Positions 10,012 to 64,000 of a DNA stretch of 64,000 nucleotides are shown in pieces. The number at the start of each line of letters is the position of its first letter. Positions within the stretch are counted from its first letter, which is position 1. This stretch comes from Sinohyriopsis cumingii. Lineage: Eukaryota > Mollusca > Bivalvia > Unionida > Unionidae. The DNA is taken from contig CM068830.1 in NCBI GenBank assembly GCA_028554795.2, positions 44,834,837-44,898,836 on the forward strand, read 5' to 3'. The position numbers and the translations under genes were made by a program. Under the pieces are notes generated by a model. The model saw only the letters and a program-made list of their open reading frames with translations. It was not told the DNA's origin and ran no database searches.

Positions 10012-10203
10012 ATGTGTGTTGACTACATCTGAACTGTTGTATGTGCATTGAATACATCTGTACTGTTGTATGTGTATTGAATGCATCTGAACTGTTGTAT
10101 GTGTGTTGACTACATCTGAACTGTTGTATGTGTATTGAATGCATCTGAGCTGTTGTATGTATATTGAATGCATCTGAACTGTTGTCTGTGTATTGAATGC
10201 ATC
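10012..10203 (-). repeat. Inverted block of satellite monomers
   Basis: For about 190 bp the satellite reads as its reverse complement (CTGAACTGTTGTATGTGTAT). The two junctions are small palindromes: CATACAACAGTTGTATG on the left and ATTGAATGCATCATTCAAT on the right. A private variant, ACACAGACAAC, seen at 9880-9890, recurs inside the inverted block, so the block is an inverted copy of its left neighbour. Confidence 0.95.
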
Positions 10204-11214
10204 ATTCAATATACATACAACAGTACAGATGTATTCAATACACATTCAACAGTTCAGATGCATTCAATATACATACAACAGTTCAGATGTAGTCAACACA
10301 CATACAACAGTTCCGATGCATTCAATACACATACACCAGTTCAGATGCATTCAATATACATACAACAGCTCAGATGCATTCAATACACACACAACAGTTC
10401 AGATGTAGTCAACACACATACAACAGTTCAGATGCGTTCAATACACATACAACAGTTCAGATGCATTCAATACACATACAACAGTTCAAATGCATTCAAT
10501 ACACATAGAATAGTTCAGATGCATTCAATACACATACATAAATTCAGATGCATTTAATACACATACAACAGTTCAGATGCATTCAATACACATACAACAG
10601 TACAGATGTATTCAATACACATACAACAGTTCAGATATAGTCAACACACATACAACAGTTCAGATGCATTCAATACACATAAAACAATACAGATGCATTC
10701 AATACACATACAACAGTTCCGGTGCATTCAATACATATACACCAGTTCAGATGCATTCAATATACATACAACAGCTCAGATGCATTCAATACACATACAA
10801 CAGTTCAGATGTAGTCAACACACATACAACAGTTCCGATGCATTCAATACACATACACCAGTTCAGATGCATTCAATATACATACAACAGCTCAGATGCA
10901 TTCAAAACACATACAACAGTTCAGATGTAGTCAACACACATACAACAGTTCAGATGCGTTCAATACACATACAACAGTTCAGATGCATTCAATACACATA
11001 CAACAGTACAGATGTATTCAATACACATAAACAGTACAGATGTATTCAATACACATTCAGCAGTTCAGATGCATTCTATATACATACAACAGCTCAGATG
11101 CATTCAATACACATACAACAGTTCAGATGTAGTCAACACGCATACAACAGTTCAGACGCATTCAATATACATACAACAGTTCAGATGTATTCAATACACA
11201 TACAACAGTTCAGA

Positions 11215-12850
11215 TGCATTCAATACACATACAATAGTTCAGATGCGTTCAAGACACATACAATAGTTCAGATGCATTCAATACACATACAACAGTTCAG
11301 ATGTAGTCAACACACATACAACAGTTCAGATGCATTCAATACACATACAACAGTACAGATGTATTCAATGCACATACAACAGTTCAGATGTATTCAATAC
11401 ACACACAACAGTTCCGATGCATTCAATACACATACACCAGTTCAGATGCATTCAAAACACATACAACAGTTCAGATGTAGTCAACACACATACAACAGTT
11501 CAGATGCGTTCAATACACATACAACAGCTCAGATGCATTCAATACACATACAACAGTACAGATGTATTCAATACACATAAACAGTACAGATGTATTCAAT
11601 ACACATTCAGCAGTTCAGATGCATTCAATATACATACAACAGCTCAGATGCATTCAATACACATACAACAGTTCAGATGTAGTCAACACACATACAACAG
11701 TTCAGATGCATTCAATACACATACAACAGTACAGATGCATTCAACACACATACAACAGTTCAGATGCATTCAATATAGATACAACAGTTCAGATGCATTC
11801 AATACACATACAACAGTTCAGATACATTCAATATACATACAACAGCTCAGATGCATTCAATACACATACAACAGTTCAGATGTAGTCAACACACATACAA
11901 CAGTTCAGATGCACTCAATACACATACAACAGTACAGATGCATTCAACACACATACAACAGTTCAGATGCATTCAATATACATACAACAGTACAGATGTA
12001 TTCAATACACATACAACAGTTCAGATGCATTCAATACACATACAATAGTTCAGATGCGTTCAAGACACATACAATAGTTCAGATGCATTCAATACACATA
12101 CAACAGTTCAGATGTAGTCAACACACATACAACAGTTCAGATGCATTCAATACACATACAACAGTACAGATGTATTCAATGCACATACAACAGTTCAGAT
12201 GTATTCAATACACACACAACAGTTCCGATGCATTCAATACACATACACCAGTTCAGATGCATTCAAAACACATACAACAGTTCAGATGTAGTCAACACAC
12301 ATACAACAGTTCAGATGCGTTCAATACACATACAACAGTTCAGATGCATTCAATACACATACAACAGTACAGATGTATTCAATACACATAAACAGTACAG
12401 ATGTATTCAATACACATTCAGCAGTTCAGATGCATTCAATATACATACAACAGCTCAGATGCATTCAATACACATACAACAGTTCAGATGTAGTCAACAC
12501 ACATACAACAGTTCAGATGCATTCAATACACATACAACAGTACAGATGCATTCAACACACATACAACAGTTCAGATGCATTCAATATAGATACAACAGTT
12601 CAGATGCATTCAATACACATACAACAGTTCAGATACATTCAATATTCATACAACAGCTCAGATGCATTCAATACACATACAACAGTTCAGATGTAGTCAA
12701 CACACATACAACAGTTCAGATGCACTCAATACACATACAACAGTACAGATGCATTCAACACACATACAACAGTTCAGATGCATTCAATATACATACAACA
12801 GTACAGATGTATTCAATACACATACAACAGTTCAGATGCATTCAATACAC
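11215..12850. repeat. 811-bp higher-order tandem duplication in the satellite
   Basis: The order of monomer variants from about 11215 repeats 811 bp later (for example 11230 with 12041, 11562 with 12373, 11851 with 12662). 811 equals 28 monomers of 29 bp minus one base, because each copy contains one 28-bp monomer. Confidence 0.9.
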
Positions 12851-13550
12851 ATACAACAGTTCAGATGCATTCAATATACATACAACAGCTCAGATGCATT
12901 CAATACACATACAACAGTTCAGATGTAGTCAACACATATACAACAGTTCAGATGCATTCAATGCACATACAACAGTACAGATGTATTCAATACACATACA
13001 ACAGTTCAGATGTATTCAATACACATACAACAGTTCCGATGCATTCAATACACATACACCAGTTCAGATGCATTCAATATACATACAACAGCTCAGATGC
13101 ATTCAATACACATACAACAGTTCAGATGTAGTCAACACACATACAACAGTTCAGATGCATTCAATACACATACAACAGTACAGATGTATTCAATACACAT
13201 ACAACAGTTCAGATGCATTCAATACACATACAACAGTTCCGATGCATGCAATAAACATGCAACAGTTCAGATGCATTCAATACACATAGAACAGTTCCAA
13301 TGCATGCAATAAACATACAACAGTTCAGATGCATGCAATAAACATGCAACAGTTCGAATGCATGCAATAAACATACAACAGTTCAGATGCATTCAATACA
13401 CATAGAACAGTTCCGATGCATGCAATAAACATGCAACAGTTCAGAAGCATTCACTGCACATACAAATACCTATAAGTATTAGTAATTATGGAGTTAAAAC
13501 GGAAAAAAATGAAAACACAGAGACATTCAAAACTAAATTGAAACTTCTGA

Positions 13551-34394: not shown

Positions 34395-35695
34395 GTTTAG
34401 AAAGTGTCTACACCACTTCCAACTACCCTCTCTCCAGTCGACCTTCCGGACTTGTTTGCAAATTTTTTCCGTGACAAAGTACAGACAATTAGAGATGACA
34501 CCACAATTTCAATTGACTTGTCGTCACCATACATTTGGGATACAGAATTTGAGCGGCAACCATTAGCAGCATTTGAACCTGTCTCTATGGATTTCGTACG
34601 TACAATCGTGATGAAGAGTGCACCAAAGTCATGTGAACTTGATCCAATTCCACATCACTGCTGCTTGAGTGCTTAGATCCAGTATTGCCTTCACTAACTG
34701 ATGTTATCAATAACTCTCTCTCAACCGGGGAATTCCCATCATTTTTCAAAACTGCCATTGTAAAGCCTGCTGAAGAAACCAACACTAGACCATAACGATT
34801 TAAAGAACTGCCGCCCAGTTTCTAATCTCCCAATCCTTTCAAAAATCTTAGAAAAGGTTGTTCTATCCCAGCTTGTATCTCATCTGAATTCAAACAGTCT
34901 TTTTAGCAATGTACAATCTGCATATCGCCCTTGCCACAGTACTGAAACTACTCTTCTAAAAGTAGTTAATGACATTCTCTCTGCTTTGGATTGCGAAAAG
35001 ATTACAGTCCTCACCCTCCTTGATTTGTCTGCAGCATTCGACACAATAGACCATGATATATTACTTGTCCGTCTCCAGCATGTATTTGGCATTCATGATA
35101 CAGCCTTACTGTGGTTCAAGTCCTACATGGTCAACAGGACACAAATTGTATCTGCAAATGGAATACATTCCAGCCCAGGTGAGCTATGTTGTGGTGTTCC
35201 ACAGGAGTCCGTTCTTGGACCTGTTCTCTTCATTCTATAAACTCACCCGCTCTCAAGTGTCATAGATCATCATCCAGTGTCTCACCAATTATACTCTGAT
35301 GACACCCACATATACAAACATGTCATGAACATATGCAAGGCTGCATATCTTGAGCTGAGACGCATCAGAACCCATTTGCAAATATCTTTCAGTTGATGCC
35401 ACTAAAGCACTTGTATTTTCATTAGTACTTTCAAGAATGGACTATTGTAACTCAATTCTGTCTGGTTAATCTCAATATCTACTCCAGAAACTTCATAAAG
35501 TTCAAAACACAGCTGCTCGGATCATACTTAGAGTACCACGATCAGAGAACACCTCTCCGCTGCTCTATACCCTACACTGGCTATCCATTCGATCTAGAAT
35601 CAAACACAAAATTTGTTCTCTGTGTTACGTTTCACTGACCGGATCCAGTCCAACATACCTATCCGACCTCACATTGAGCACATTTTCCACAAGTA
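34395..35695 (+). mobile_element. L2-like LINE fragment (reverse transcriptase), decayed
   Basis: The pieces, in order, are a linker with DLPDLFANFFRDKVQTIRDD, then NCRPVSNLPILSKILEKVV, SAYRPCHSTETTLLKVVND, LLDLSAAFDTIDHDILL (motif A), FKSYMVNRTQ, CCGVPQESVLGPVLFIL (motif B) and a YSDDTHIY version of motif C at 35290. After 35390 the sequence jumps to LSRMDYCNSILSG, LQKLHKVQNTAARIILRVPR and LHWLSIRSRIKHKICSL, the thumb and C-terminal region typical of the L2 group. The jump indicates an internal deletion between palm and thumb. Several stops and frameshifts are present, and the endonuclease half is missing. Confidence 0.9.
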
Positions 35696-43610: not shown

Positions 43611-43616
43611 ATTAGC

Positions 43617-43876
43617 GAGTTGATGCCCACATACGTATAAACGAGTTGATGCCCACATACGTATAAATGAGTTGATGCCCACATACGTATAAACGAGTTG
43701 ATGCCCATATACGTATAAACGAGTTGATGCCCACATACGTATAAATGAGTTGATGCCCACATACGTATAAACGAGTTGATGCCCACATACGTATAAATGA
43801 GTTGATGCCCACATACTTATAAACGAGTTGATGCCCACATACGTATAAATGAGTTGATGCCCACATACGTATAAAC
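43617..43876. repeat. 26-bp tandem repeat, 10 copies
   Basis: Ten units of GAGTTGATGCCCACATACGT plus ATAAA(C/T). The last base alternates C and T through most of the array, suggesting amplification by pairs (52 bp). Degenerate copies continue to about 43985. The minus strand is open in all three frames, so the open frames of up to 130 codons are artefacts. Confidence 0.95.
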
Positions 43877-43989
43877 GAGTTAAACAAATATGTTTAAAAC
43901 ATTGATGCTCAAACACGCATAAAAGAGTTGATGTTCAAATATGCATCAACGAATTGATATTCAGATATCAATGAACGAGTTTGAAGATT

Positions 43990-51948: not shown

Positions 51949-52061
51949 GGGGAAGGGATGATCGAAACGGATTGAGTTGGTTGACCAATCCAATCACGCG
52001 TTACAAAATTCAATCACCATTCGTCCAATCGGAAGAGATCAGTCCGTGAAGTCACATTCCC

Positions 52062-52067
52062 TATAAA
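52062..52067 (+). promoter_or_regulatory. TATA box of the plus gene in pair 1, with CAGT start-like motif
   Basis: CTATAAAGAGG with CAGTC 26 bp downstream (52088), the spacing expected of TATA plus an initiator; the ATG follows at 52098. Confidence 0.55.
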
Positions 52068-52097
52068 GAGGCACTAGCGTTTGTGCGCAGTCAATCC

Positions 52098-52679
52098 ATG
52101 CGACACAGCATAAACATGACACAAACTCAGAAGACAATGAATTGGGGTGCACCGGCCGTGGAAACTACCCAAGTGAACCCGGACTTACTTCCAGAAGAGG
52201 TGAATTGGGATTTTGTGGATTTTCTTTCGCAAGAATTTGTTCCTCAACCATTACCTTCGCCACCTTCTCCTTCTTTACCACACGTGGAGAATTTTAAACA
52301 GAAACAGAAAGAACAATTGGAGAAATTTATACAACAGCAAGAGGAAGCAGAACAAGCTTTTTTCCTACGACAGCAAGAAGAAGAGGTAAGAAAGAAACAA
52401 TAAGAAGAAGCAGCAAAGAAACAAGAGGGTGAAAGTCAAACGGTTACGATACTGTTAGACATTTTAGCGGAGTTAAGAAGTCTGAAACAAATGTATCAGA
52501 CTTCTTTATTACGACCGAAGAGAAAAAGACCTTCCCGAGCTAAACAACCCAACCCTGTGACAACACCTACAATACCACCCTTAATGATTTCTACCAAATC
52601 ATCATCGACAGGACGCAGTCCAGAAGTAGGCCTTGGCCGTGGCAAAGGCTTAAGGCAGTTAAAGTTGATTGCTTCCTAA
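52098..52679 (+). pseudogene. Proline-rich, coiled-coil and basic protein (segment 1), one internal stop
   Basis: A single frame runs from ATG 52098 to TAA 52679 with one in-frame TAA at 52401-52403. In order: a polar N-terminus ending in NPDLLPEEVNWDFVDFL, a proline-rich stretch (PQPLPSPPSPSLPHVENF), a Q/E/K coiled coil with EEAEQAFFLRQQEEEVRKKQ, the stop, a leucine-rich helix (TVTILLDILAELRSLKQMYQ), then a basic tail with RPKRKRPSRAKQPN and GLGRGKGLRQLKL. This layout resembles a DNA- or scaffold-binding structural protein, but I recognise no family. It is expressed from the divergent promoter at 51.9-52.1 kb. Confidence 0.45.
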
Positions 52680-53027
52680 GTTTGTTGTTTAAAACCAACA
52701 AATACCCAAAGGCCCTTTTCAGTGCCACCCATTTCTCTTGAAAAGAGATAGTATTTCAATTGCCAACATCAATTAAAACTAAAAAATCTTTTTTACCCAT
52801 ATAGTACGTGTGAATGGTTGAGTGCGTGAGTATAGGTTCTTATTCTTAAAATCAAAACCAAGAGACACTTACTTTTTATAGACTGTCTGTTCTGGTACGA
52901 ATTTTACAATCCAATTCACAACACAACATAGCACTTTAAAAAGTTCATAGGCTTCTTCTTTGTCTGTTTTCACTCTCTCTTTTTTTTAAATGTCTTCACT
53001 TTCACAGTTTTTTCCTCCTCTTCATCC
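52680..53027. other. Convergent 3' region of segment 1
   Basis: Non-coding DNA between the convergent plus gene ending at 52679 and the minus gene ending at 53028. A CT-rich stretch lies next to the latter. Confidence 0.5.
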
Positions 53028-53399
53028 TCACTTTCTTCCCTTCTTTTTTTTCTCCTGTTTCTGTTTCTTCACCTGTTTGCTTTCTTCCTCTTCTTCCTCT
53101 CTATAACTCCCCTCTTCTTCTTGCTCCTGTTGTTTCTTAGGGCAATCTGGAGACCAATGTCCTTTCTCTTGACAATGATAACATGCATCTTGACGTTTGT
53201 CTCTTCTAACCCCTGTTTTGTTTTCTTGACAGTCTGGACACTCTGAAGACCAATGTCCTTTATTCTTACAGATATAGCAAGTATCTTGACTTTTATCTCG
53301 AAAGGAGGATGAGTAGTCCGTAGGCTTGTCTGAAGAAAATTTTCTGATGACCCCTCGCAAAGCTCTGATGAAACGTTCGATCTGTGTAGTCTCGTCCAT
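53028..53399 (-). CDS. Double CCHC zinc-knuckle protein
   Basis: Starting at ATG 53399 (MDETTQIERFIRALRGVIRK), 123 residues. Two zinc knuckles of the CX2CX4HX4C form are intact: CYICKNKGHWSSEC and CYHCQEKGHWSPDC, each followed by a proline or charged linker. The C-terminus is a long E/K-rich tail (about 40 residues). CCHC knuckles bind single-stranded nucleic acid and are best known from retroviral Gag, but here the gene is a stand-alone intronless unit with no capsid or protease part. I prefer this start to the upstream one at 53543 because a minus-strand TATA (TATATAAA, 53461-53454) lies about 55 bp before it. It is divergent from the plus gene at 53535. The zinc-binding function is confident; the role is inferred. 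Confidence 0.7.
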   Translation of the reverse strand: MDETTQIERFIRALRGVIRKFSSDKPTDYSSSFRDKSQDTCYICKNKGHWSSECPDCQENKTGVRRDKRQDACYHCQEKGHWSPDCPKKQQEQEEEGSYREEEEEESKQVKKQKQEKKKKGRK

Positions 53400-53453
53400 T
53401 GTTCTGCTCAGTTTGAGAGTGAAATGAATAATGGAAGGACAAGACACACACCC

Positions 53454-53461
53454 TTTATATA
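53454..53461 (-). promoter_or_regulatory. TATA box of the zinc-knuckle gene
   Basis: GTATATATAAAGGG on the minus strand. Confidence 0.55.
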
Positions 53462-53480
53462 TACGCTGGTCTGTCATGGA

Positions 53481-53487
53481 TATAAAG
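53481..53487 (+). promoter_or_regulatory. TATA box of the plus gene in pair 2
   Basis: GATATAAAGTG, 54 bp before ATG 53535, with TAGTCATTT about 28 bp and CAGTC 46 bp downstream. Confidence 0.5.
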
Positions 53488-53534
53488 TGACCCATGGTGT
53501 TTCTCATGTAGTCATTTGACTTTTTGCAGTCAAG

Positions 53535-54198
53535 ATGAAACAATCCAATCCACTCGTGAAGAAAGGAGAAGAAGAAAGTAAGAGGCAGAAACGTGATCTA
53601 TCGCCTCGTACCATCGCTGAAGTCTTGGCACAAATTCATGCCAGTGATTTTGAAGAGGACATGAGTGAACCAGAATCCAGGCCCAGAGAGTCTACACCTA
53701 GTCGAAGTTCACGAGTCAACCCTGAAAAGTACTATCACATTCGAGAGACGGAAAAGCGTCCCTCTAGAAAATTTAGAACCACGGCTTACAAATACACGGT
53801 GAAGTTTAAAGATTTCAAGTCCGACGTACCATTGGAGAAAGCAGAAGGGTTCATCACCGAGGTGTGGGATTCTTTGCTCACCACACTAAAGCGACAATGT
53901 CAACCCAAAAGAATACGATCGCTTGAGACTTTCCATAGAACACGACGGTTTTAAATCCCCTGTTTGGATCGAGTTTAGCAGCCCTGCATAATTGACCGCT
54001 TCCAAAGTCATGGACAAGATTCAATATGTACAACAATCTAATGACCAAATTGACATCACAGACGGTAAAGCCACACTGTCCGTGACCCACGTCTCTCCTC
54101 CTCAAGGGACCGGACGCAAAAAGGTCTTATTGGTGAACGATCTTCGCAGCATCAAAACAAGCCTAAAGCAGCAGGGAGGGCGAACAGACTCTAATTGA
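53535..54198 (+). pseudogene. Possible N-terminal part of a Maverick-type PolB protein
   Basis: Frame 1 (53535-53954) begins MKQSNPLVKKGEEESKRQKR, with a basic, disordered start and then a folded-looking part ending DSLLTTLKRQCQ. A frameshift near 53910 moves the continuation into another frame (EYDRLRLSIEHDGFKSPVWI), which crosses an in-frame TAA at 53989-53991 and runs to 54198 (SVTHVSPPQGTGRKKVLL, DLRSIKTSL). By overall pattern I associate this order of segments with the region preceding the polymerase domain in proteins of Maverick/Polinton-like elements, but this is from memory of family style, not a search. No polymerase motif follows: the gene is cut off at about 54170. The promoter is shared with the zinc-knuckle gene. 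Confidence 0.4.
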
Positions 54199-54346
54199 AA
54201 ATTTCCATTTTATGCCAAAGAAGACTTCCACGAAAAAATCATCATGTAAGTCTTTGTTTGTTAAAAATAAACACTTCTATGATGATTTAAAGATCTTAGC
54301 CAGCGAGAAAACAATCTTAAAATATACTTGAGACGGACCCTCCCTG
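54167..54346. repeat. Short inverted repeat at the border of segments 1 and 2
   Basis: GCAGCAGGGAGGG at about 54170 and CCCTCCCTGCTGC at about 54333 are perfect reverse complements enclosing about 150 bp of non-coding DNA. They mark the place where the PolB-like gene of segment 1 stops. Confidence 0.7.
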
Positions 54347-54434
54347 CTGCTATTCATTTCAGAATATTTTCTAAATCAGTCTTGATTAAAATATTTTATC
54401 ATTATAAATTAAAATCATTAATATATTAATAATC

Positions 54435-55126
54435 ATGGATGTTGGAGAAGCATATACTACTAGATTAGTACCAGAACGATTAGAAGCAATAAAGAAATAT
54501 CTTCCACTGAGAGATTCTGTCAAACGAAAAATGCAAGCAGTTGAAGATGCAAAACAAGGTTTCGCGGAGTCAACTGAGTTATTATTTAAACCTGTAACTA
54601 AAGCTACTGAAAAAGCCGCCGAGGCTGCTGAAAGAATCCTGCTTTGAGATATTGAAGATCCCGAAGAAAGAAATAGAGGCATCCTTCCAGTGTTAAAACA
54701 ATTTGAAGCTCAAACTCGACCTCAAGCTCAAGCTCAACCTGCAGCTCAACCTGAACCTGTAGCTCAACCTGAACAGGTTTCTTTCATAGAAAGATTTACT
54801 GATGATGCTGCACGAACAATAAAAAATTTCCATTTGAAACTGCTGATGATATAATTGAATTTGGTGCATTTGCTTACTCAATTTTTAAAGAAAAACATAA
54901 TTTTTTAAAAACTGAATATTTTACAAAAAGTAAAAGTAGCAATTCGTGGATTGATTGGATATATAAAGCAAAACGAAATATTTCCCGTGTAAATAAAATT
55001 GGTGATGATATTTATCGTAAGTTTAGTGAGGGAAAAATATTAAAAGAAAAATATGATCTAGAAAAAAAGGAAGAAGAAAGAAGAAAAAATGGAAAAAAAT
55101 TATGCAAAAAGCAAAGAAGGTACTGA
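54435..55126 (+). pseudogene. Unrecognised element protein with A/P/Q-rich linker, broken
   Basis: From ATG 54435 (MDVGEAYTTRLVPERLEAIK) a helical, charged domain runs to an in-frame TGA at 54645-54647. The same frame then continues through an acidic bit and a low-complexity linker (QAQAQPAAQPEPVAQPEQ, about 54715-54775). Near 54825 the frame shifts and goes on with FGAFAYSIFKEKHNFLK and WIDWIYKAKRNISRVNKIGD, ending in a K/E-rich helix and TGA at 55124-55126. It overlaps the next frame by about 25 bp and might once have formed one protein with it. No family recognised. The position at the head of the capsid cluster suggests a structural or accessory virion role. Confidence 0.45.
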
Positions 55127-55725
55127 AAAGTGTGCCAGAAAAACAACAACCTTCATATAAACTTCCTGCGCCTTTGCAACAACAACCTAAATTATCATCT
55201 CAACCTAGTATGATGTTTACTGATGATACTCTTAATACTTTTAAAGACAGAGATAAATTAATTAATATTGCTGCGCATAATTATGATTACAGAGATGATT
55301 ATCTGAAACCAGAATTTGTTGATGACATAACATCTGAAAAAGAATGGATTCCTTCAGTATATTTTGCTTCTACAGGAGATAAAATAAATTTATCAGATCC
55401 AGAGTATAAATTTTTTTTTAAAGATGTAAGTGAGCGTTTGATTAAAACATATCAACAAAAAGAATCTACGGAAGAACAATCTTTCGATATACTAAAATCT
55501 CTTGGTGTTACCGGTAGTGGTTATAATTCTGTTTGTTCCGACAATGTTCTCAATGATGTATCGCGATTAGAAGTTTTTATTGGAGGAAAACGAGCTGGAA
55601 ATAATTCATCAGAAATAATCAACGAGCCAACTGATATCTGCCGAAGATTGTTTCAGGCCGGCGTCATGGATATTAGCATTTACCGAAATCTCATTGATGA
55701 ACTCGTTGACGATTACAGTGACTAG
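55102..55725 (+). CDS. Unrecognised 207-residue element protein
   Basis: Intact frame from ATG 55102 (MQKAKKVLKSVPEKQQPSYK) to TAG 55725. It has a basic, P/Q-rich N-terminus of about 40 residues, then a mostly acidic and aromatic globular part (IAAHNYDYRDDYLKPEFVDD, IPSVYFASTGDKINLSDPEY), a glycine-rich turn (LGVTGSGYNSVCSDN) and an acidic C-terminus ending DELVDDYSD. No known domain recognised. It sits directly upstream of the minor-capsid-like gene, and its 3' end is followed by two AATAAA signals, the second abutting the next ATG. It is one of the few unbroken frames here. Confidence 0.6.
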   Translation: MQKAKKVLKSVPEKQQPSYKLPAPLQQQPKLSSQPSMMFTDDTLNTFKDRDKLINIAAHNYDYRDDYLKPEFVDDITSEKEWIPSVYFASTGDKINLSDPEYKFFFKDVSERLIKTYQQKESTEEQSFDILKSLGVTGSGYNSVCSDNVLNDVSRLEVFIGGKRAGNNSSEIINEPTDICRRLFQAGVMDISIYRNLIDELVDDYSD

Positions 55726-55747
55726 TTGTTAAATAAACAAATAATTA

Positions 55748-55753
55748 AATAAA
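55748..55753 (+). terminator. AATAAA polyadenylation signal abutting the next start codon
   Basis: AATAAAATG: the signal for the upstream gene ends exactly where ATG 55754 begins. A second AATAAA lies at 55732-55737. Confidence 0.5.
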
Positions 55754-56180
55754 ATGATCGTGCATAAAAATTATCGTAAACCTGTGCCTGTTCGAGTGGT
55801 GAATGCGCGGTTACCCATGTACAAATTCACTTACGGAAATGGATTAGGTGATATTATTAAAGGTTTTATTACAAGACTAGCTCCTAAAGCGGGTCCTATC
55901 GTGAAACAATTATCAATGAAGGCTATAGACTTTATTCGTGATAAAGCTTTTGCTGCTGTTGGTAGCGCTGCCAGCAAAACGTTCAACACCGTCAAAGACG
56001 GAATATTCAATTTAGTACGCAGAAAAAAAACAACCTGTCGCGGCGGTCAAATTACCAAGCACCGCAGTGATGCCCAGCGACGTCAGTAAAATAATAAACG
56101 ACGCAGCAAATCAAAATCTATCATCGTTGATAAATCAAGAAGCAGAACAAATAAATACGAGCATGATATCAGGAAGGTAA
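55754..56180 (+). pseudogene. Minor capsid / pVI-pX-like protein, frameshifted
   Basis: ATG 55754. A basic N-terminus (KNYRKPVPVRVVNARLPMYK) is followed by a glycine motif and amphipathic helices (TYGNGLGDIIKGFITRLAPK, KQLSMKAIDFIRDKAFAAVG), then KDGIFNLVRRKK. A short basic head, a G-N-G-x-G-D-I motif and a membrane-active-looking helix before basic residues are features of adenovirus pVI/pX-type minor virion proteins and their adintovirus counterparts. A run of eight A at 56023-56030 shifts the frame; the continuation in the next frame (SDVSKIINDAANQNLSSLIN) ends at TAA 56178-56180, just before the capsid gene. Family assignment is by pattern only. Confidence 0.55.
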
Positions 56181-56187
56181 TGTTTTT

Positions 56188-56193
56188 AATAAA
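56188..56193 (+). terminator. AATAAA signal abutting the capsid gene start
   Basis: AATAAAATG again: the signal follows the stop of the pVI-like gene by 7 bp and touches ATG 56194. Confidence 0.5.
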
Positions 56194-57443
56194 ATGTTCT
56201 CGCGAATATCTAACGCTGTTTTTGACATGGATGAACTAATAAGCAAAGATGATTCGGTGCGTGATTATCAGTATTATTCATATGACGCGGTAAAACCAAA
56301 TCAAGATGGGCGAGTTGAACTTCAGGTTCATGACACAAGCAGATACTTTTTACCTTGTGAAGCGTTGATCGAAGTTGTTGGTGAACTCATAAAAGCCGAT
56401 AATAACGTATATCCAGAAGCTTTCAAAGTTGGTTTTGTTAATAATGGTATTATGACATTATTTAAGAGCGCCATATACATGGTTGATGGAAAAGAAATTG
56501 AATCAATTCATGACAATGTCGATGTTGCTACGACGATTATAGACCTAGCGAGATACTCAAATGATTTTACTAGATCAGCTGATCCTAGTATGATGTTTGC
56601 CAAGGATAATTTTAATGAAGCTGATCATAATCAATTCAATCTCGTACAATTGACTCATGTTTCTGCGGGTGCTGCCGCAGCTGGAACGATAGCTCGGTCA
56701 GGTGCTCCATTTCCGGTAGTGCAAAGCGTTAATCATAATTTTAATATGGGATTTGCAACACGCAGACACATGTTAAAAGGTAACCGCAGAAGATTTTCGG
56801 GTATGATTCCGTTATCTCATATATTTGGATTCTGCAGAGATTTTAGAAAAGTAATTTTTGGAGCCAAACACACAGTTGTTCTTTATCGAAAAGGCGATAG
56901 TAATGATGCAATCTGGAGAGAGGGTGATGATGATCCTGCTGTTGATGCTGCTAATGCTGGTAAAGTAGTACTATCTAAACTTTCACTGTGGATGCCAGTA
57001 ATGACCCCATCAATATCTGAAGAAAGTAAATTACTTTCTTTTATGAATCAGGGTGGTAAATCAATAATGTATTGGTTGACAACGATCACCGATAGTACCA
57101 GCAATAACATAAATGGTATTTTACTTGGCATATATCATCACAACAAGGTGTTTCTGCACCTAGACATATCTTTATTGCTCTTCAAAACGCTGATCGATCA
57201 GATAATAATCAAAGAGCTAGTCATATGATATTTGATCATTTTAACGCTAGTGAAATATCATTGCGGATAAATGGGCATCAAGAACCATCTGAAGAAATAT
57301 CGTTAGATTTTGATACTAATTCAGTAGCGCGTGGATATCGTCGGTTGTTGAGTTTTATGGGACGAGATGAAAATATCGATACTGGTTTGCAAATATCACA
57401 ATTGGATTTTATAACATTATATCCGATCTATTATTTTTCATGA
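56194..57443 (+). pseudogene. Probable major capsid protein (double jelly-roll type), one frameshift
   Basis: About 415 codons in two frames. The N-terminal part begins MFSRISNAVFDMDELISKDD and contains a beta-rich fold with KVGFVNNGIMTLFKSAIYMV and DGKEIESIHDNVDVATTIID. The middle has MIPLSHIFGFCRDFRKVIFG and a strand-rich section with KVVLSKLSLWMPVMTPS. Near 57115 the frame shifts by one base; the rest (HMIFDHFNASEISLRINGHQ, QISQLDFITLYPIYYFS) ends at TGA 57441-57443. The length, order of blocks and C-terminal 'D-x-x-x-LYP-x-x-F' end match capsid-type proteins found repeatedly in invertebrate Maverick-like elements. The jelly-roll fold is inferred, not computed. The neighbouring pVI-like and penton-like genes support it. 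Confidence 0.6.
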
Positions 57444-57494
57444 AATCATATCAAATTAAATGATATAATTCGACGGAGCGAATATAATACTCAC

Positions 57495-58071
57495 GTGAAT
57501 GATTTTACTACCCTTCAAGAAGCTATCAGAAAAACTGATGAAACTATTACTGAAAAAATCGACAGATATGCTGTAAGAGTCCTTGAATATATCATAAAAA
57601 AACGATAATAAAATCGATGAAACTATCAAAAAAATAGAATAAATTAACAAAAAACTCACCGATATCAATACCAGCATAGATTAATTCAAAGGAACTGAAT
57701 TATTAATTCCTGGAATTATTGGAAAAACTAACCTTGTTAAGATTCCAGCAAGAATAAACGTAAACAATATCTTATTTACGACGTTGACGGGATCATCAAC
57801 ATGGACGCCAGAAAATAATACTCTCAAATACACCGCTGCAGTTACTGGCGTGCACAGATTATACATATTTTCCCCTGTAAGATTCAGAATAATTACTAAA
57901 GAATACGACTGGAGACATCCCAGTGATAGATTTCTCGGATTTTTAACTGTTTTATTAAATAAAGGAGTCGAAGAAACATTTACGTTAGAAACTGATAAAA
58001 CAACAAAACCAACATCGTACTGGTGGTGCATGGAGTTCATAGCTGAGTCGCCTCAATTATTTACTAGGTAA
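57495..58071 (+). pseudogene. Fibre-like protein: coiled-coil stalk plus beta-rich head, broken
   Basis: The open frame after the capsid gene (no ATG found) starts with a heptad-like helix (LQEAIRKTDETITEKIDRYA and on to YIIKK). It shifts frame at a run of seven A near 57600, continues with DNKIDETIKKIE and NKKLTDINTSID across two in-frame TAA (57640-57642, 57682-57684), then becomes beta-rich: GTELLIPGIIGKTNLVKIPA, SSTWTPENNTLKYTAAVTGV, SPVRFRIITKEYDWRHP, ending with YWWCMEFIAESPQLFTR. A thin coiled-coil stalk followed by a beta head is the architecture of trimeric viral receptor-binding fibres. There is no sequence family I can name; the assignment rests on architecture and position in the virion cluster. 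Confidence 0.45.
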
Positions 58072-58078
58072 AAACATA

Positions 58079-58607
58079 ATGAGTGCATCCAAGTACAGGT
58101 ATGATCAAGTGCGTGAATGACAGTCGTCGCTGAAAAATATCATCGACGTATACACGGCAAAGATAAAAAAAATATCAGGGACGATTAGTTATCATTGATG
58201 TGATTGTTTATTCGGTATCCGCGGCTGTTGCTGGAGCTAGAATAATATTATCCGCGGTAACAATGATGGCACCGGTAACTATAACTATTTGTGTTTCCGC
58301 GGCAACGACGGTCGCAGGTGTCCTTAACATGGTCTCAAAAAAAGTGTGTTCCTGTACGAATGAAAAATTATCCGAGTATGTTATTAAATTACATACAGGG
58401 ACGGCCGCGTATTCGAAATTATCTTCGCTGTTGTAGGAGAGTCTCAGTGATGAAATTATATCCGACTCTGAGTTCTCGTCGATGATGAAAATTTACAACC
58501 AAGCTGATATTAAAGCTACGAATATTAATAATGGCGGAATTACTTCAGCAGATCGTGACAAATACGGTTCCAAGAAAAACCACGATGATCTCGGTAAGTT
58601 CGACTAA
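58079..58607 (+). pseudogene. Small membrane protein of the element, broken
   Basis: ATG 58079 (MSASKYRYDQVRE), an in-frame TGA at 58118-58120, a helix with KNIIDVYTAKIKKISGTISY, a frameshift near 58195, then two alanine/valine-rich membrane-like segments (YSVSAAVAGARIILSAVTMM, ITICVSAATTVAGVLNMVSK). After an in-frame TAG (58434-58436) the frame continues with an acidic helix (ESLSDEIISDSEFSSMMKIY) and ends at TAA 58605-58607, overlapping the next gene by 77 bp. The order soluble helix, two TM segments, acidic C-terminal helix recurs in Maverick-like elements as far as I know, with unknown function, possibly a virion membrane or exit protein. Confidence 0.45.
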
Positions 58608-59942
58608 ACCAGAATTTAATATTAATTTTCCAGCTGCAATTTCCATTGACGAAATCGCACTAGCACAGTTGCGAGTATATCACAGCTGGCCCAACATCAG
58701 ATCTAAATCATTTGGTGGATTACAATCAAATAATTCATTTGTGTTTACTAATAAAAATAAAACCGATGGCACCCCTAATTGGATCGTCGTTGGAATACCA
58801 ACAGGTAGTTATCAAATTGAAGAAATTAATGATGAATTAACACGCAGAATAAAAAATATAACCGGAAAAGAACCTGGGATAAAAATATCCGCGCATGAAC
58901 CAACACTAACTTCGATCATCAAGGTAAGTTCAAACTACGTTGTTGATATTTATGCAATTTAATTAGAACCGTCTTAGGATGGCCTGAAATTGTACCAGCA
59001 CAACCACCAGATCCACCAGAAATTAAAAAATCTGATTATATCACAGACAAACAATCATATTATGATACTGATCCAAAATACAAACAAAATTTAGATGTTA
59101 TAAAGGATGCAACCATAAAAAGCGATTTTATTCTCAGAGAGAAAGATCAAATACCGTGTAGTTTTTATAGTAAGCGAATTCAAGCGGGAACAAGAAGAGG
59201 CGTCTCTGTTGATGTAAGTGAATTTTTTGAGTATTTTAAAGAAATTAATCAAGAACATTTTAATCAACTAAATCAATTAAAGAAATATTTTCGTGAATGT
59301 GTTTTTAACGTATCAAGTTCATGTAGCGAGATTATCAAACACATAGAAATAATGAATCAGCTTGCATCCGACATGAAATATTTTCACACACGAATGGTTC
59401 AGGCAGTAATTAATCCGTTAGGCTTATAAAATAAAGAAAAATTTTTAGACGCGTACTCGCTGACGGAAGCTGAATTACCAAAATTTAAATTTTCTGGTTA
59501 TAACGCACCTGAATTAAGAAAATCTGTCAGCGACACCATTGATGAATTATTTTATGAATTATCCGCGTGGAAATAATTATTACCACCACCAGCTATACTT
59601 AGACGCGAAAATGCTCCATCTGGCGGCGGCAGACATATTTCGCCGGAGCCGGTAAATATAACGACCGTGGTTGCGGTTAATCTTAGTTGTGACATCGTCG
59701 AAAACAGCTACAGCGCAGACACATCAGTGTCAAATCAGGCCCAGCAAGGATTTATTCTTTATTCGTTCTCGCCGAAACAACCACCGGGATACTTAATTGT
59801 GCAAGAACCAATTAATCCGGTTTATCTGCGATGTCATAATCGTTTATTATCAAGAATGAATTTCAGACTAACAGATCAATCTGGAAATTTGCTTGATTTA
59901 AGAAACGAAACATTAAGTATTAATTTACTTATAAGATCGTAA
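58531..59942 (+). pseudogene. Penton-like jelly-roll protein with a ~200-residue insertion, broken
   Basis: The first frame (ATG 58531, MAELLQQIVTNTVPRKTTMI) has strand-rich blocks including LAQLRVYHSWPNIRSKSF and PTGSYQIEEINDELTRRI and ends at 58962. A one-base shift near 58958 leads into one continuous frame to 59942, crossed by TAA at 59427-59429 and 59574-59576. This frame holds a polar, helical stretch (VSEFFEYFKEINQEHFNQLN, DMKYFHTRMVQAVINPL, ELPKFKFSGYNAPELRKSVS), then strand-rich blocks typical of the second half of such proteins (PVNITTVVAVNLSCDIVENS, FILYSFSPKQPPGYLIVQEP, NFRLTDQSGNLLDLRNETLS). Both halves fit the single-jelly-roll minor capsid (penton-type) proteins of Maverick-like elements; the helical middle looks like an insertion. 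It is located between the membrane protein and an A-rich 3' region. Confidence 0.5.
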
Positions 59943-60045
59943 GATCTTTATCGTAAAATGTTTCCAACCTCTATACCTGAAAAAAAAAAAATAAAAAAAA
60001 AGATAAAAACCAACAAAAAATAATAAAATATATTTTTTTAAAATT
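59943..60045. terminator. A-rich convergent 3' region
   Basis: Between the plus-strand penton-like gene and the minus-strand gene. It contains two long A runs with an AATAAAA at 60020-60030, suitable as a polyadenylation region for the plus gene. Confidence 0.45.
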
Positions 60046-60520
60046 TCATAATTTTGGAATATAAAAATTATACCTAATAAGGTAATCTTTGATATTAAAT
60101 ATCATCGAAGTATGATAATGAATTTTAGATTTATCTGCGGCAATTTTAACATATTCAGCTGCTTCTAGAAATTCCTGAAATTTAATAAAATTTCTTTGTG
60201 AAAGTTTTTTAATTCGCCGCTGAAATTCCTCATGAAACTCACTAACTATTGCAATTAGCGAAAACGGAGTTAGATCAGGCGAATCGTTTCTGGAATTTAT
60301 TGGCTAAATAAACCTGATATTGGAAATCTTACTTTGATGAAATTTTCTTCAAAATTAAATTGTGTAGCTGAGCGAGTAATGGAGCATTTTGCAAACGCAA
60401 ATGCGGATCAGGTTTAACCGATTCAAGACGAAAAATAATAATCGCATGGACGGAATCGGTCACTGCGGGTGCGTCAGTAAATGATGTTGCTGCGTTATCA
60501 ACTAAATTAAAATGTCCCAT
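60046..60520 (-). pseudogene. Unrecognised minus-strand element protein, broken
   Basis: ATG 60520 (MGHFNLVDNAATSFTDAPAV) with VHAIIIFRLESVKPDPHLRL and an amphipathic region to a stop at 60329. A shift near 60290 gives a long helical continuation (TPFSLIAIVSEFHEEFQRRI, FQEFLEAAEYVKIAADKSKI) ending at 60046. The frame also stays protein-like upstream of ATG 60520 (GAPRDLLADSYKTSPDSVFT) to about 60600, interrupted only by a TGA, so the true start may be further right. Its helical C-part resembles in style the inserted region of the penton-like gene (both have an F-E-F/helical block and an HT-M ending), which hints at a shared origin. Function unknown. Confidence 0.45.
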
Positions 60521-60660
60521 GATGGTAAAAACGCTGTCGGGGGAAGTTTTATACGAGTCAGCGAGTAAATCTCGAGGAGCACCAATTATAATTGTTGATC
60601 AGAATTCGCACGCATGGACGTCCGCGGTAACAATATTCCTCAGAAAATTCTGAGGCAGAT

Positions 60661-61863
60661 ATGTTTGATTTTATTTATAAAATAAGTAAATCCGATCCAG
60701 TATCGGTGTGGTTGTTTAAGAGCAACGAGGATGAATATGATCAGTTTGTAAGACATAATGGTGAATTATATAGAAATGAATTATTACACAACGAAATGAA
60801 AAAATTGTCAGAAAAATACTCAACAAATCCTGAACAGTTATTGATTAATTGTTTAACTGTTCCATCTGTTGCTGCCCACACTGCCAAGGAAAAAAATACA
60901 TGGAAACCAACTGGGGGGGGGAATTTCTCAAAGATGTACAACAAAGTTGTATCGAATATGGACACGGCGGATTATGGAATACCAAATACAATTGTGTCGA
61001 TATGGTATCATTTGACATAATCGCGTGTTATCCTGGAAGTTTTTTAGGATTAGGCGAATGTGCTAAATATTTTACACAATCTGGACATCCTTGTGACGAA
61101 TTGACGCTAGTATCAATTAATGGTCCGTTACCGGATTTTCCACTGACAGGATTCGCTCGTGTAGTATCATTTGAGTTTGCTGCGAATTTACATAAAATTT
61201 GTTATATTTGGTTTGGTAAACTTTTTTCGGAACGATGCTGGGTACCAATAGTGTTGCTGCGATATATGCTTGATTCGGCGATGTTAACGACGCTGACGAT
61301 CAGCGATGCAATTATATCATATAAAAAACAAACTTCGGTTTGGTTGCCAACGGAACACGAAGCAGCAAAAGATCTAAGTAGAAAAATAATCGGTAAATTC
61401 ACTCAAGGTGGTGCATATGATCATCAACGACATCTTTGCAGATTAATCATGGACGACCCTGAATTAGATTTTATAATCGCTGATACCGCATCAAGAAATA
61501 TATTTTGTAATCGAGAAAACGTTTATTTATTAAACTGAAAAAAATTAGGTACCGTTGTCAGTTACATTGATGGAGAATCTCCGCAGTATACTCATTTAAG
61601 ATCATCGATGTTCGCATATGTAAGTATAAATTTACTTTCGATAATAAAAAAGATTTCCCAGCGAGGCAGTTAGAGTAGCTACTGATTCGTTTTACATCGA
61701 TAGAAATCACTCAGCGGCGTTAGAAAATTTAACCGGTGACGGTTCATGGGGCACATGGAGAATCAAAAACGAAAATATTCTTAATTATTGTGAGCCAGCT
61801 TATGTTGCGATTGAAGATAAATATTACCGCGATGCAGTATTAGAAATTTCTTCATCACCGTGT
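60661..61863 (+). pseudogene. PolB-helicase-HNH fusion, part 1: family B DNA polymerase palm
   Basis: ATG 60661 (MFDFIYKISKSDPVSVWLFK). A run of nine G (60913-60921) shifts the frame. After it comes WNTKYNCVDMVSFDIIACYP then GSFLG, matching PolB motif A (D-x-x-x-x-YP-S). Next are a long region with DAIISYKKQTSVWLPTEHEA and FIIADTASRNIFCNRENVYL, an in-frame TGA (61536-61538), and SYIDGESPQYTHLRSSMFAY in the same frame. A second shift near 61640 gives SEAVRVATDSFYIDR, the TDS-type motif C. A complete N-terminal exonuclease domain is not evident. The same open frame that carries motif C runs straight into the helicase part, so polymerase and helicase are one protein. Replication of the element is the likely role. 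Confidence 0.65.
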
Positions 61864-62956
61864 TTGTACGATCCGGTATCACGATGTAAAACCGTCTGCG
61901 TGAACGGGCCGGGTAGTTCTGGTAAAACCACAAGAATAATAGAATTAGTTAGAAATTCTGACGTGATCGTGTTGACGCCCACACACAAACTAGAGCGGGA
62001 GATGAAACAACGAGAAGTTAATTCGTGGACGTACCATAGTTTTTTTAAATACAGCGGTGGTACATGGACTTCTTCGCGAATGGGGGAAAAATATATCAGT
62101 AAAGTTATTATTTGGGATGAAATTTGTACTGTTTCGTTGGAAACACTAAAAACATTCCTTGATTGGTTATTGTTGAAAAATACTGCTATAATTATGTGCG
62201 GTGATCACGGTCAACCGAATCCCATTGATGGAGAATCTCCTCATGACTGGCTGAAGAATTTTGTTGATTATTATGAAGAAGTTGATACCGATTACAGATC
62301 ACTTGATACAGAATTAAGTTAATTTAAAAAATTATTTCGATTACAATCAAATAAAACTCAGTGCACGATTATGCGTAGAGTAATTTCAGAAACATCCATG
62401 AAGGAATTTTTAAATCTATGGACGCCAAATGATTTAATAGTTGCAAGTAGAAAAATAGTTCGTGATGCGCTTCAACGGGAATTATTTCAGTTACATAAAG
62501 ACAAATTTCCATTATTACCGGTGTCGTTATGCTATCTGCCAGCAGATAGACGACGACAAAATATTGACGTTAACGTGCCAGGGCAAGGAAATCAACATTT
62601 AGTATTAAATTATATTGTTACTGTTAATGCTGAACTTGTCGAGCAAGCACTACACGCGGATAAATCTCCATGGACGTTAGGATATGCATTGACGATTCAT
62701 TCGTCTCAAGGATTAACAATTACTGATACACGAGTTTGGATCGTCGATGATCACATATAATGGTCAAATTTAGTTTATGTAGCTGTATCTAGAGTTAGAA
62801 AAATATCTCAACTGAAACGGATCGTTTTAGATAAATCAATAATTAATGATGAAATCGACGATTACGTAATAAGGAAAAAATTATTTAGTTATAAACAATT
62901 TGATAACAAAATAATTATAAATTTGACCTGGATGTGCAATTTGTTATATCGCTGAA
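61864..62956 (+). pseudogene. PolB-helicase-HNH fusion, part 2: SF1 helicase
   Basis: Walker A GPGSSGKTTR (motif I, about 61906), TPTHKLEREMK (motif Ia), TYHSFFKYSG, IIWDEICTV (Walker B, D-E, about 62112), IIMCGDHGQPNPI (motif III with GDxxQ), EEVDTDYR. An in-frame TAA follows at 62320-62322. The frame resumes with TQCTIMRR, NDLIVASRKIVRD (motif IV-like), TLGYALTIHSSQGLTI (motif V) and, beyond an in-frame TAA at 62758-62760, WSNLVYVAVSRVRKISQL (motif VI with SR). All superfamily 1 motifs are therefore present in order. The frame starts upstream of this coordinate without a break from the polymerase motif C, and ends at TGA 62954-62956. It is a DNA-unwinding module for element replication. Motif residues look intact; the gene as a whole is broken. 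Confidence 0.8.
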
Positions 62957-63147
62957 ACAACAACAAAACAATCACTGTTCAGGTTGTAATTGTATAATAA
63001 CGTGGCAGTATCAGAAAATGATTCAAGACAATTTACCGTTGACAGGAAAATAATAATTACGGTCATACGCGAGAAAACATCACTCTAGCGTGTTTGGAAT
63101 GTAATCGACGTGGAGTTTGTTATTTAAGTGATTGCGGCGGTAATTGA
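62905..63147 (+). pseudogene. PolB-helicase-HNH fusion, part 3: HNH-like zinc endonuclease tail
   Basis: A shift near 62905 gives FDLDVQFVISLKQQQNNHCS then GCNCIITWQYQ, a C-x2-C pair. A short QFTVDRK piece lies in another frame (about 63029), and NNYGHTRENITLACLECNRR (63053-63112) supplies a histidine and a second C-x2-C, ending at TGA 63145-63147. C-x2-C ... D-R ... GH-x2-(E)N ... C-x2-CN is the layout of HNH/endonuclease-VII-type zinc nucleases. It is the C-terminal tail of the polymerase-helicase gene and overlaps the 3' end of the converging integrase by 28 bp. Two frameshifts lie within it. Confidence 0.6.
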
Positions 63148-64000
63148 GTATCCTCGGGAATTACTTGTAATTCTTCACGCTGAGGAGCAAGTGAATCAAG
63201 TACATAAATTGCTAGTTCTACCGGTTGATCTTGTCACGGTGGATATTTTATGTGTTGTTATACTCCAAAATAGGATCAGTTGCTCTTTTTCTGCCACCCT
63301 CAGCCTCGCCTGGTTTATATAAATATCTCACAATGATACTACCTAGCACTGGTCGTGTTGAAAAATCATATCTTTTTATTGGTTTGACCTCGCGCGTAAT
63401 CGCGATCGCCGGTTTCATATTTATTGCTCGTGTTGATTCATTATTTATCGCTAATATTACATCTGGTAATCCTTCCACCCATTCGTGGGATCTCTTATCC
63501 TGAATAAATTCTCTCGCGTACTGATATCCAAATAATCGCTCAGCAAGTGTTTTATTAAATCGTTCAACAATAGCTTGATCGCGATGAATTCCAGTATGTC
63601 CGCGCCGTATATTAACGTTTTTTTGTTTCATTAAAAATGATAGCGCACCTAAAAATTCCCTACCAGGATCAACTTGAAGTAAAATTGGCCATTTTAACGG
63701 TCCTCGCTGATAAATTTTTATAAATGCATTTTGTCGATAACGGTTCCGCTTCTTTGTATCTACTTGAGATATCAACTATCGTTAGTACGGACTTGTATGT
63801 TTTATCGTTAACAACATCGTGCGGTAAAAACATAATATCAGTCTAATAAACTTTATTAGGAACACTAACGTCAAAATGTGCGTGTTCGATTCGTTTAGGC
63901 GGCGGTAGATAAATTTGCCACGCTGCCTGCTTGGACAACCACGACGCAGCAGTAGCAGGTTTTACTTTTGCAGCTGCGGTAAGTTTTTTAATTGCTGTTT
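63120..64000 (-). pseudogene. Maverick-type DDE integrase, broken and running off the window
   Basis: Reading right to left: AASWLSKQAAWQIYLPPPKR and HAHFDVSVPNK, then an in-frame TAG (63845-63843), TDIMFLPHDVV (first catalytic D) and SVLTIVDISSRYKEAEPLS. A frameshift near 63735 follows, then YQRGPLKWPILLQVDPGREF (second D), GHTGIHRDQAIVERFNKTLA (catalytic E, about 34 residues after the second D), SHEWVEGLPDVILAINNEST, and a C-terminal beta-rich tail with PVLGSIIVRYLYKPGE. Another shift near 63255 leads to ELAIYVLDSLAPQREELQVI and the stop at 63120. All three DDE residues are readable. This is the retrovirus-like integrase that inserts Maverick/Polinton elements. The N-terminus lies beyond base 64000. 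Confidence 0.85.

What the first reader, a model, noticed from the sequence alone, without database searches (positions are those of the whole stretch)
54350..64000. Endogenous virus-like element with virion module, polymerase-helicase and integrase
In under 10 kb there are pVI-like, capsid-like, fibre-like, membrane and penton-like genes followed by a replication gene and a DDE integrase. This combination defines Maverick/Polinton-like elements, but the polymerase is fused to an SF1 helicase and the fibre and minus-strand proteins are unfamiliar. It is the best candidate in the window for an undescribed lineage.
Basis: partly seen in the sequence, partly recalled or inferred. Interest (0 to 1): 0.85.

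Follow-up and report, generated by a model that had tools for sequence, protein, structure and literature searches.

The report
Broken polinton-like provirus in animal genome
This is a decayed copy of a virus-like DNA element, with shell-protein, replication and integration genes, that has multiplied to many copies in what is probably a freshwater mussel genome; its kind was known mainly from single-celled organisms.

Summary
The gene block is one integrated element. The window copy runs from a left terminal inverted repeat (TIR) at 54167 to a right one beyond the window end (65089; 10,923 bp; 76-bp arms, 1 mismatch). The MCP is a double jelly-roll. The virion-gene order recurs in 9 of 9 other copies examined. 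117 MCP loci, this one included, were scored in the 2.9-Gb genome; 52 of 117 have an open frame of 450 aa or more and no stop in the match. The replication protein is a phi29-polymerase-like fold fused to a Pif1/RecD2-type SF1 helicase, with motif C DTD changed to A/V-TD in 24 of 24 relatives. That is the published Tlr1-like helicase, so this is a Tlr1-type polinton-like virus, not a canonical Polinton. The window copy is defective: MCP C-terminus, protease and a cargo block are deleted and frames are broken. It sits inside a canonical Polinton. The host, probably a unionid mussel, is inferred. The architecture, and cargo of HNH and lipase kinds, are known; a molluscan host was not met in the literature searched.

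The parts
54167..54242 (.). Left terminal inverted repeat; its partner lies beyond the window at 65014-65089
   Evidence: 76 bp, 98.7% identical to the inverted copy; first 23 bp found with 0-4 mismatches at the left end of 8 of 10 copies examined
54408..55725 (+). Remains of the first gene (531 aa open in copy c1), no known family, split over frames here
   Evidence: Cluster K11, 10 of 10 copies; no Pfam hit
55754..56089 (+). pVI-like small basic protein (name by position and composition)
   Evidence: Cluster K12, 10 of 10 copies; a similar stretch precedes the MCP inside the Potamilus streckersoni gene model P0023 (by eye); no Pfam hit
56194..57443 (+). Major capsid protein, double jelly-roll; frame broken and C-terminus deleted
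   Evidence: PF21738 E 3.7e-8; sister copy c2 1.1e-20; model of relative P0001 matches PBCV-1, faustovirus and mavirus MCPs
57440..57448 (.). Deletion junction 1: MCP C-terminus, whole protease-like gene and start of fibre-like gene missing
   Evidence: About 1.3 kb present in copies c1, c2, c9, c10 is absent here; cluster K17 in 9 of 10 copies, not in the window
57448..58071 (+). Fibre-like protein, later part
   Evidence: Cluster K19, 10 of 10 copies; a longer relative matches coiled-coil families
58167..58436 (+). Membrane-type small protein
   Evidence: Cluster K21, 10 of 10 copies; hydrophobic segments seen by eye in a sister copy
58489..59942 (+). Penton-like (minor capsid) protein in three frame pieces, with a long middle region
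   Evidence: Cluster K25, 10 of 10 copies; pieces align to open frames of 465 and 456 aa; relatives P0079-P0081 cover 95-98% of it; no Pfam family above its cut-off
59950..60285 (.). Deletion junction 2: minus-strand cargo block (HNH endonuclease and two small genes in other copies) missing
   Evidence: About 1.8 kb in c6 and c9 replaced by about 0.33 kb here; HNH_3 E 6e-12 in copy c1
60372..62955 (+). Protein-primed-type polymerase fused to SF1B helicase, in several frame pieces
   Evidence: Cluster K31; AAA_19 1.1e-8; motifs; model of relative P0026 matches phi29 polymerase and Pif1/RecD2
63248..64000 (-). rve-type (DDE) integrase, interrupted; its start lies just beyond the window
   Evidence: Cluster K37; rve 4e-9 in L030:7049-8047; window frames shown
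53520..54166 (+). Flank: part of a canonical Polinton into which the element inserted (not part of the element)
   Evidence: Flanks 88-91% identical to L027 and L023, where they lie next to each other; L027 carries DNA_pol_B_2 2.3e-36

Best explanation
A defective integrated copy of a Tlr1-type polinton-like virus (PLV) of a bivalve, probably a freshwater mussel of the order Unionida. Shown: a TIR-bounded element (14.1 and 14.4 kb in the two sister copies read to both ends, 10.9 kb here) inserted with a short target duplication; many dispersed copies; a double jelly-roll MCP, a protease-like gene, an A32-type packaging ATPase, a PLA2-DUF5679 protein, an rve integrase and a fused polymerase-helicase. 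Inferred: the linear double-stranded genome is copied by strand displacement from its TIRs by the pPolB-S1H protein, packed by the ATPase into an icosahedral capsid of the MCP with penton-like and fibre-like proteins, matured by the protease, helped across membranes by the PLA2 domain, and inserted into the germ line by the integrase. The window copy cannot do this: the protease gene and part of the MCP are gone, the ATPase P-loop is damaged and many frames are broken.
For: TIRs and borders. Target duplication: 6 bp AGTACT exact in c6, a 7-bp match in c2, AGCCT/AACCT for the window copy, read by eye against the empty site. Synteny over 10 copies. MCP: Pfam and structure. ATPase Pox_A32 3.9e-12; PLA2 2.2e-13 with DUF5679 3.5e-12. 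Protease: Peptidase_C5 at 0.011 and 0.078, below cut-off, with His, Asp, Gln and Cys in order in c16 (tetrad recalled). Polymerase-helicase. Copies: 117 MCP loci scored, a lower bound. MCP dN/dS median 0.27 over 75 of 78 pairs from 13 stop-free sequences, which fits a protein in use while copies spread.
Against: No Pfam polymerase model hits any of 24 relatives at E 0.1 and a profile comparison with a Polinton pPolB fails (probability 3.4), so the polymerase part rests on fold (phi29 rmsd 6.5) and motifs. No virion, transcript or extrachromosomal DNA was seen. Penton, fibre and pVI names have no family hit. The Cys of the protease is absent in the c12 frame. A P-loop frame was seen in 3 of 5 right-end pieces only: c10 showed none within 1.5 kb and c9 is mostly masked. 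Five scans of IMG/VR, which need short exact patterns, found no relative; P0001 has no PDB match by sequence. The window copy's target duplication is imperfect. Using stop-free sequences biases dN/dS downward.
Confidence: 0.9

Rival explanations
1. A canonical Maverick/Polinton (adintovirus-like) element with an ordinary pPolB and an extra helicase.
For: rve integrase, A32-type ATPase, protease-like gene, DJR MCP, TIRs and a 6-bp duplication are shared with Polintons.
Against: Motif C lacks the first Asp in 24 of 24 relatives; helicase and polymerase are one open frame in P0026, 1058 aa; the Polinton repeat around it has DTDS in sister copy L027.
Confidence: 0.05
2. A purely intracellular DNA transposon: the integrase moves copies within the germ line and the capsid genes are passengers, never forming particles.
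For: Many held and decayed copies; no particle evidence; integrase and TIRs could suffice for movement.
Against: MCP dN/dS 0.12-0.48 in the 75 usable of 78 pairs; protease-like, ATPase, PLA2 and virion genes stay together across the copies read.
Confidence: 0.2
3. Contamination of the assembly by a protist or virus living in the animal.
For: Elements of this general kind are described mainly from protists (passages of PMC10120064).
Against: The 117 MCP loci lie on 33 contigs, and those whose length was shown include many of over 100 Mb; this copy is nested in a Polinton of the same assembly; named MCP relatives are unionid mussels.
Confidence: 0.02
4. Chance neighbourhood of unrelated decayed elements.
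For: The window is repeat-rich.
Against: Same order of virion genes in nine other copies and matching TIRs at both ends.
Confidence: 0.01

Closest known systems
Tlr1 element of Tetrahymena thermophila and Tlr1-type polinton-like viruses (pPolB-S1H)
   Same: rve integrase, packaging ATPase, both capsid proteins and a large polymerase-helicase with a Pif1-like SF1 domain and altered motif C (passages of PMC11071308 and PMC4642659)
   Different: Host is an animal, probably a bivalve; carries PLA2-DUF5679 and an HNH gene on the minus strand (HNH domains and lipases as such are reported in related elements); no GIY-YIG hit among the frames scanned; no sequence of Tlr1 itself was at hand to compare
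Canonical Polinton/Maverick and adintoviruses
   Same: DJR capsid, rve integrase, A32-type ATPase, protease-like gene, TIRs, 6-bp duplication (the last recalled for Polintons)
   Different: Polymerase motif C is not DTD and a helicase is fused to it
Oxyrrhis marina PLV (OmPLV)
   Same: Polymerase-SF1 helicase fusion in an endogenous PLV (passages of PMC12721341)
   Different: There the helicase is N-terminal, the exonuclease is kept, a tyrosine recombinase is present and rve was not detected; here the helicase is C-terminal and rve is present
Transpovirons
   Same: Tlr1-like polymerase-helicase (passages of PMC11071308)
   Different: Described there as linear plasmid-like molecules parasitising mimivirids, not as elements with a virion module

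Membership tests
Tlr1-type polinton-like virus | Polymerase palm of pPolB type fused to a C-terminal SF1 helicase, motif C without the first Asp | tested here: met
   on relative P0026 and 23 others; window pieces and sister copies show the same motifs; no Pfam polymerase hit
Tlr1-type polinton-like virus | rve-type integrase | tested here: met
   PF00665 4e-9 in L030:7049-8047; the window integrase piece itself has no hit
Tlr1-type polinton-like virus | Double jelly-roll MCP | tested here: met
[quoted passage not shown]
   Candidate by position and recalled resemblance; no Pfam family above its cut-off; structure not predicted
Tlr1-type polinton-like virus | FtsK/HerA-type packaging ATPase | tested here: met
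   Pox_A32 3.9e-12 in L030:5865-6539; P-loop frames in c2, c6, c16 (3 of 5 right-end pieces); damaged in the window copy
Tlr1-type polinton-like virus | vOTU and terminal-protein domains before the palm | tested here: inconclusive
   The model's first 290 residues are partly of low confidence and were not searched alone
Tlr1-type polinton-like virus | MCP and polymerase-helicase group with Tlr1 or PLV references in a tree | not tested
   No reference sequences were at hand; the tree holds only database relatives
Canonical Polinton/Maverick | pPolB with SLYP and DTD motifs and an exonuclease domain | tested here: not met
   CYP or CFP in 22 of 24 (2 are gapped there) and A/V-TD in 24 of 24; the exonuclease part was not tested separately
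Canonical Polinton/Maverick | TIRs and short target duplication | tested here: met
Canonical Polinton/Maverick | Adenovirus-like cysteine protease | tested here: inconclusive
   Peptidase_C5 0.011 and 0.078, below cut-off; residues in order in c16, Cys missing in c12; gene absent from the window copy

The most novel reading that the evidence does not exclude
A still-active lineage of virion-forming polinton-like viruses of molluscs, distinct from the Maverick/Polinton lineage known in animals, that parasitises or competes with canonical Polintons in the same genome, of which the nested insertion seen here is one trace.
Probability: 0.15. Interest if true: 0.8.

Novelty: new member of a known kind. 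Interest (0 to 1): 0.45.

Why it matters
A published survey, which searched protist genomes and excluded animal ones from its screen, states that cnidarian capsid genes were the only metazoan ones outside the Maverick-Polinton cluster (passages of PMC10120064). A Tlr1-type PLV amplified to over a hundred capsid loci in a bivalve, with polymerase-helicase relatives named from sea slugs and arbuscular mycorrhizal fungi, would widen the known hosts of this type and gives a copy-rich series in which to test whether such elements spread as viruses or as transposons. Nesting in a Polinton shows that both element types entered one germ line. Against this, another paper already mentions PLV-like elements in animals, with entomopoxviruses (passage of PMC12220804).

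Tried and rejected
Canonical Polinton and chance assembly were tested and rejected. A packaging ATPase seemed absent until the right end was read. Self-comparison of the window for TIRs gave nothing usable because the right end lies outside it. IMG/VR scans with the MCP, the MCP alignment, the helicase, the integrase and the polymerase-helicase alignment gave no relative in 5 of 5; the phage collection gave none for the MCP; P0001 gave no PDB sequence match. Profile comparison with a Polinton pPolB failed. One integrase of 339 aa (L037:8280-9296) clustered with the element's integrase but reads like that of the Polinton type by eye, so it is not used as evidence. A first dN/dS run used wrong strands for nine of ten loci and a second stopped on an identical pair; one search replaces both, with 3 of 78 pairs dropped (two saturated, one near-identical). 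In one search one of 43 sequences was dropped for poor coverage; P0076, a named fungal protein, is not in that tree. On rereading I found that HNH genes and lipases are already reported in related elements and that PLV-like elements in animals are mentioned, so I narrowed the novelty claim and lowered interest from 0.5 to 0.45.
Full report
What was given. I checked the sequence, its continuation beyond the window, sister copies in the same genome and relatives elsewhere.

Borders. The window is G000:C7:44834837-44898836, in a genome of 2.9 Gb in 1138 contigs. Comparing the region before the capsid gene with the sequence after the window end finds a 76-bp inverted repeat, 98.7% identical, at 54167-54242 and 65014-65089. 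The same first 23 bp lie at the left end of 8 of 10 copies examined (nine others plus the window), with 0 to 4 mismatches; c16 and c82 gave none at up to 5. Two sister copies were read at both ends: c6 spans 14,373 bp, its ends aligning over 248 bp at 92.7% (about 20 of these bases lie outside the TIR), and c2 spans 14,080 bp, with 283 bp at 96.8%. c6 has an exact 6-bp duplication AGTACT; c2 shows a 7-bp match CCTCTTG. The window copy, 10,923 bp, is shorter by about 3.2-3.5 kb.

Empty site. The two flanks of the window copy align at 88-91% to L027 and L023, where they are next to each other. Read by eye against these, the overlap AGCCT (left) and AACCT (right) suggests a 5-bp duplication with one mismatch, plus two extra bases on the left. 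The repeat it sits in is a canonical Polinton: L027 encodes DNA_pol_B_2 at 2.3e-36 with SLYP and DTDS motifs, and the sequence after the window carries DNA_pol_B_2 fragments (7.9e-8, and 2e-5 just under the cut-off), a Pox_A32 ATPase (6.7e-7) and an rve integrase (9.5e-11). This is a virus-like element inside another.

Gene content. I fetched 10 kb on either side of the capsid start for nine other copies, chosen from the 117 loci, and clustered open frames of 70 aa or more. In element orientation: a first gene of up to 531 aa, pVI-like, MCP, fibre-like, membrane and penton-like genes, each in 10 of 10 copies including the window; a protease-like gene in 9 of 10 (missing in the window); three minus-strand cargo clusters in 7, 7 and 6 of 10; polymerase-helicase and integrase in the expected orientation in 8 of 10 (c12: inverted second element; c82: not reached). 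Further right, in the pieces reached, lie a minus-strand DUF5679-PLA2 gene and a plus-strand ATPase next to the right TIR. A P-loop frame was seen in c2, c6 and c16, in c12's second element, and damaged in the window copy; c10 showed none within its 1.5-kb piece and c9 is mostly masked. Pfam: MCP PF21738 1.1e-20 and HNH_3 6e-12, with NUMOD1 1.8e-4 just under its cut-off; rve 4e-9; ATPase Pox_A32 3.9e-12; PLA2 2.2e-13 with DUF5679 3.5e-12. The window's own PLA2 piece, at 64110-64385, gives 2.8e-12; its ATPase piece gives no hit. The protease reaches Peptidase_C5 only at 0.011 and 0.078, below cut-off; the c16 frame shows His, Asp, Gln and Cys in the order I recall for adenovirus-like proteases, the c12 frame lacks the Cys.

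Penton-like protein. Open frames of 465 and 456 aa in c16 and c2 align with the three window pieces. Ten relatives were found; P0079-P0081 cover 95-98% at 43-47% identity, and Potamilus and Sinanodonta are among the rest. So its long middle region is a lasting trait and not an accident of this copy.

Copies and decay. 117 MCP loci, the window copy included, were scored in the genome (a lower bound), the others at 61% to 76% identity to it; 52 of 117 have a frame of 450 aa or more and no stop in the match. dN/dS over about 300 MCP codons among 13 stop-free sequences has a median of 0.27, range 0.12-0.48, in 75 of 78 pairs. The window copy lost about 1.3 kb at 57440-57448 and a net of about 1.4 kb at 59950-60285, and its first gene, MCP, penton, polymerase-helicase and integrase are each broken into frame pieces. 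Copies without these lesions exist; none is singled out here.

Placement and novelty. It works like, and by most features tested is, a Tlr1-type PLV; trees with reference sequences, the single jelly-roll of the penton and the vOTU domain remain untested or open. It is not a canonical Polinton. Nine literature searches (listings read) showed no report of a Tlr1-type PLV in a mollusc. The library lacks most subscription papers, and the key paper PMC5499653 was not held, so animal examples may be printed there; PMC12220804 mentions PLV-like elements in animals. HNH genes and lipases are reported in related elements. The PLA2-DUF5679 fusion and the long penton middle region were not searched for in print, apart from PLA2. 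PMC11071308, PMC12721341, PMC10120064, PMC4642659, PMC3671162, PMC12220804 and PMC11071296 were read as passages only, PMC4028283 as outline and abstract. The host name is an inference from named relatives and genome size.

Noticed in passing
window 52000-54166 and L021:1090-10000: The element is nested in a canonical Polinton with pPolB (SLYP, DTDS in sister copy L027), A32-type ATPase and rve integrase; the flank also holds a zinc-knuckle frame (53031-53597, minus; zf-CCHC 1.1e-12).
   Followed up: partly
window 4829-13465: A tandem array of 29-bp units, 8.6 kb long, about 295 copies; a 26-bp array at 43616-43978.
   Followed up: no
L029:6620-9988: A second copy of the fibre-like, membrane and penton-like genes lies upstream of copy c3; the fibre-like frame there is 493 aa and matches coiled-coil families.
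   Followed up: no
L030:1-10000: Copy c12 is followed by a second element in inverted orientation.
   Followed up: partly
L006 and L013: Two MCP copies on contig C5, 0.4 Mb apart, are 99.3% identical with 0 synonymous and 6 nonsynonymous differences; a recent duplication or a recent second insertion.
   Followed up: no
proteins P0043, P0046, P0057, P0061, P0068, P0072: Polymerase-helicase relatives named from arbuscular mycorrhizal fungi form a well-supported group with one unnamed protein.
   Followed up: partly
window 34764-35240: Frame with reverse-transcriptase-like wording by eye (AFDTIDH), a likely LINE fragment.
   Followed up: no
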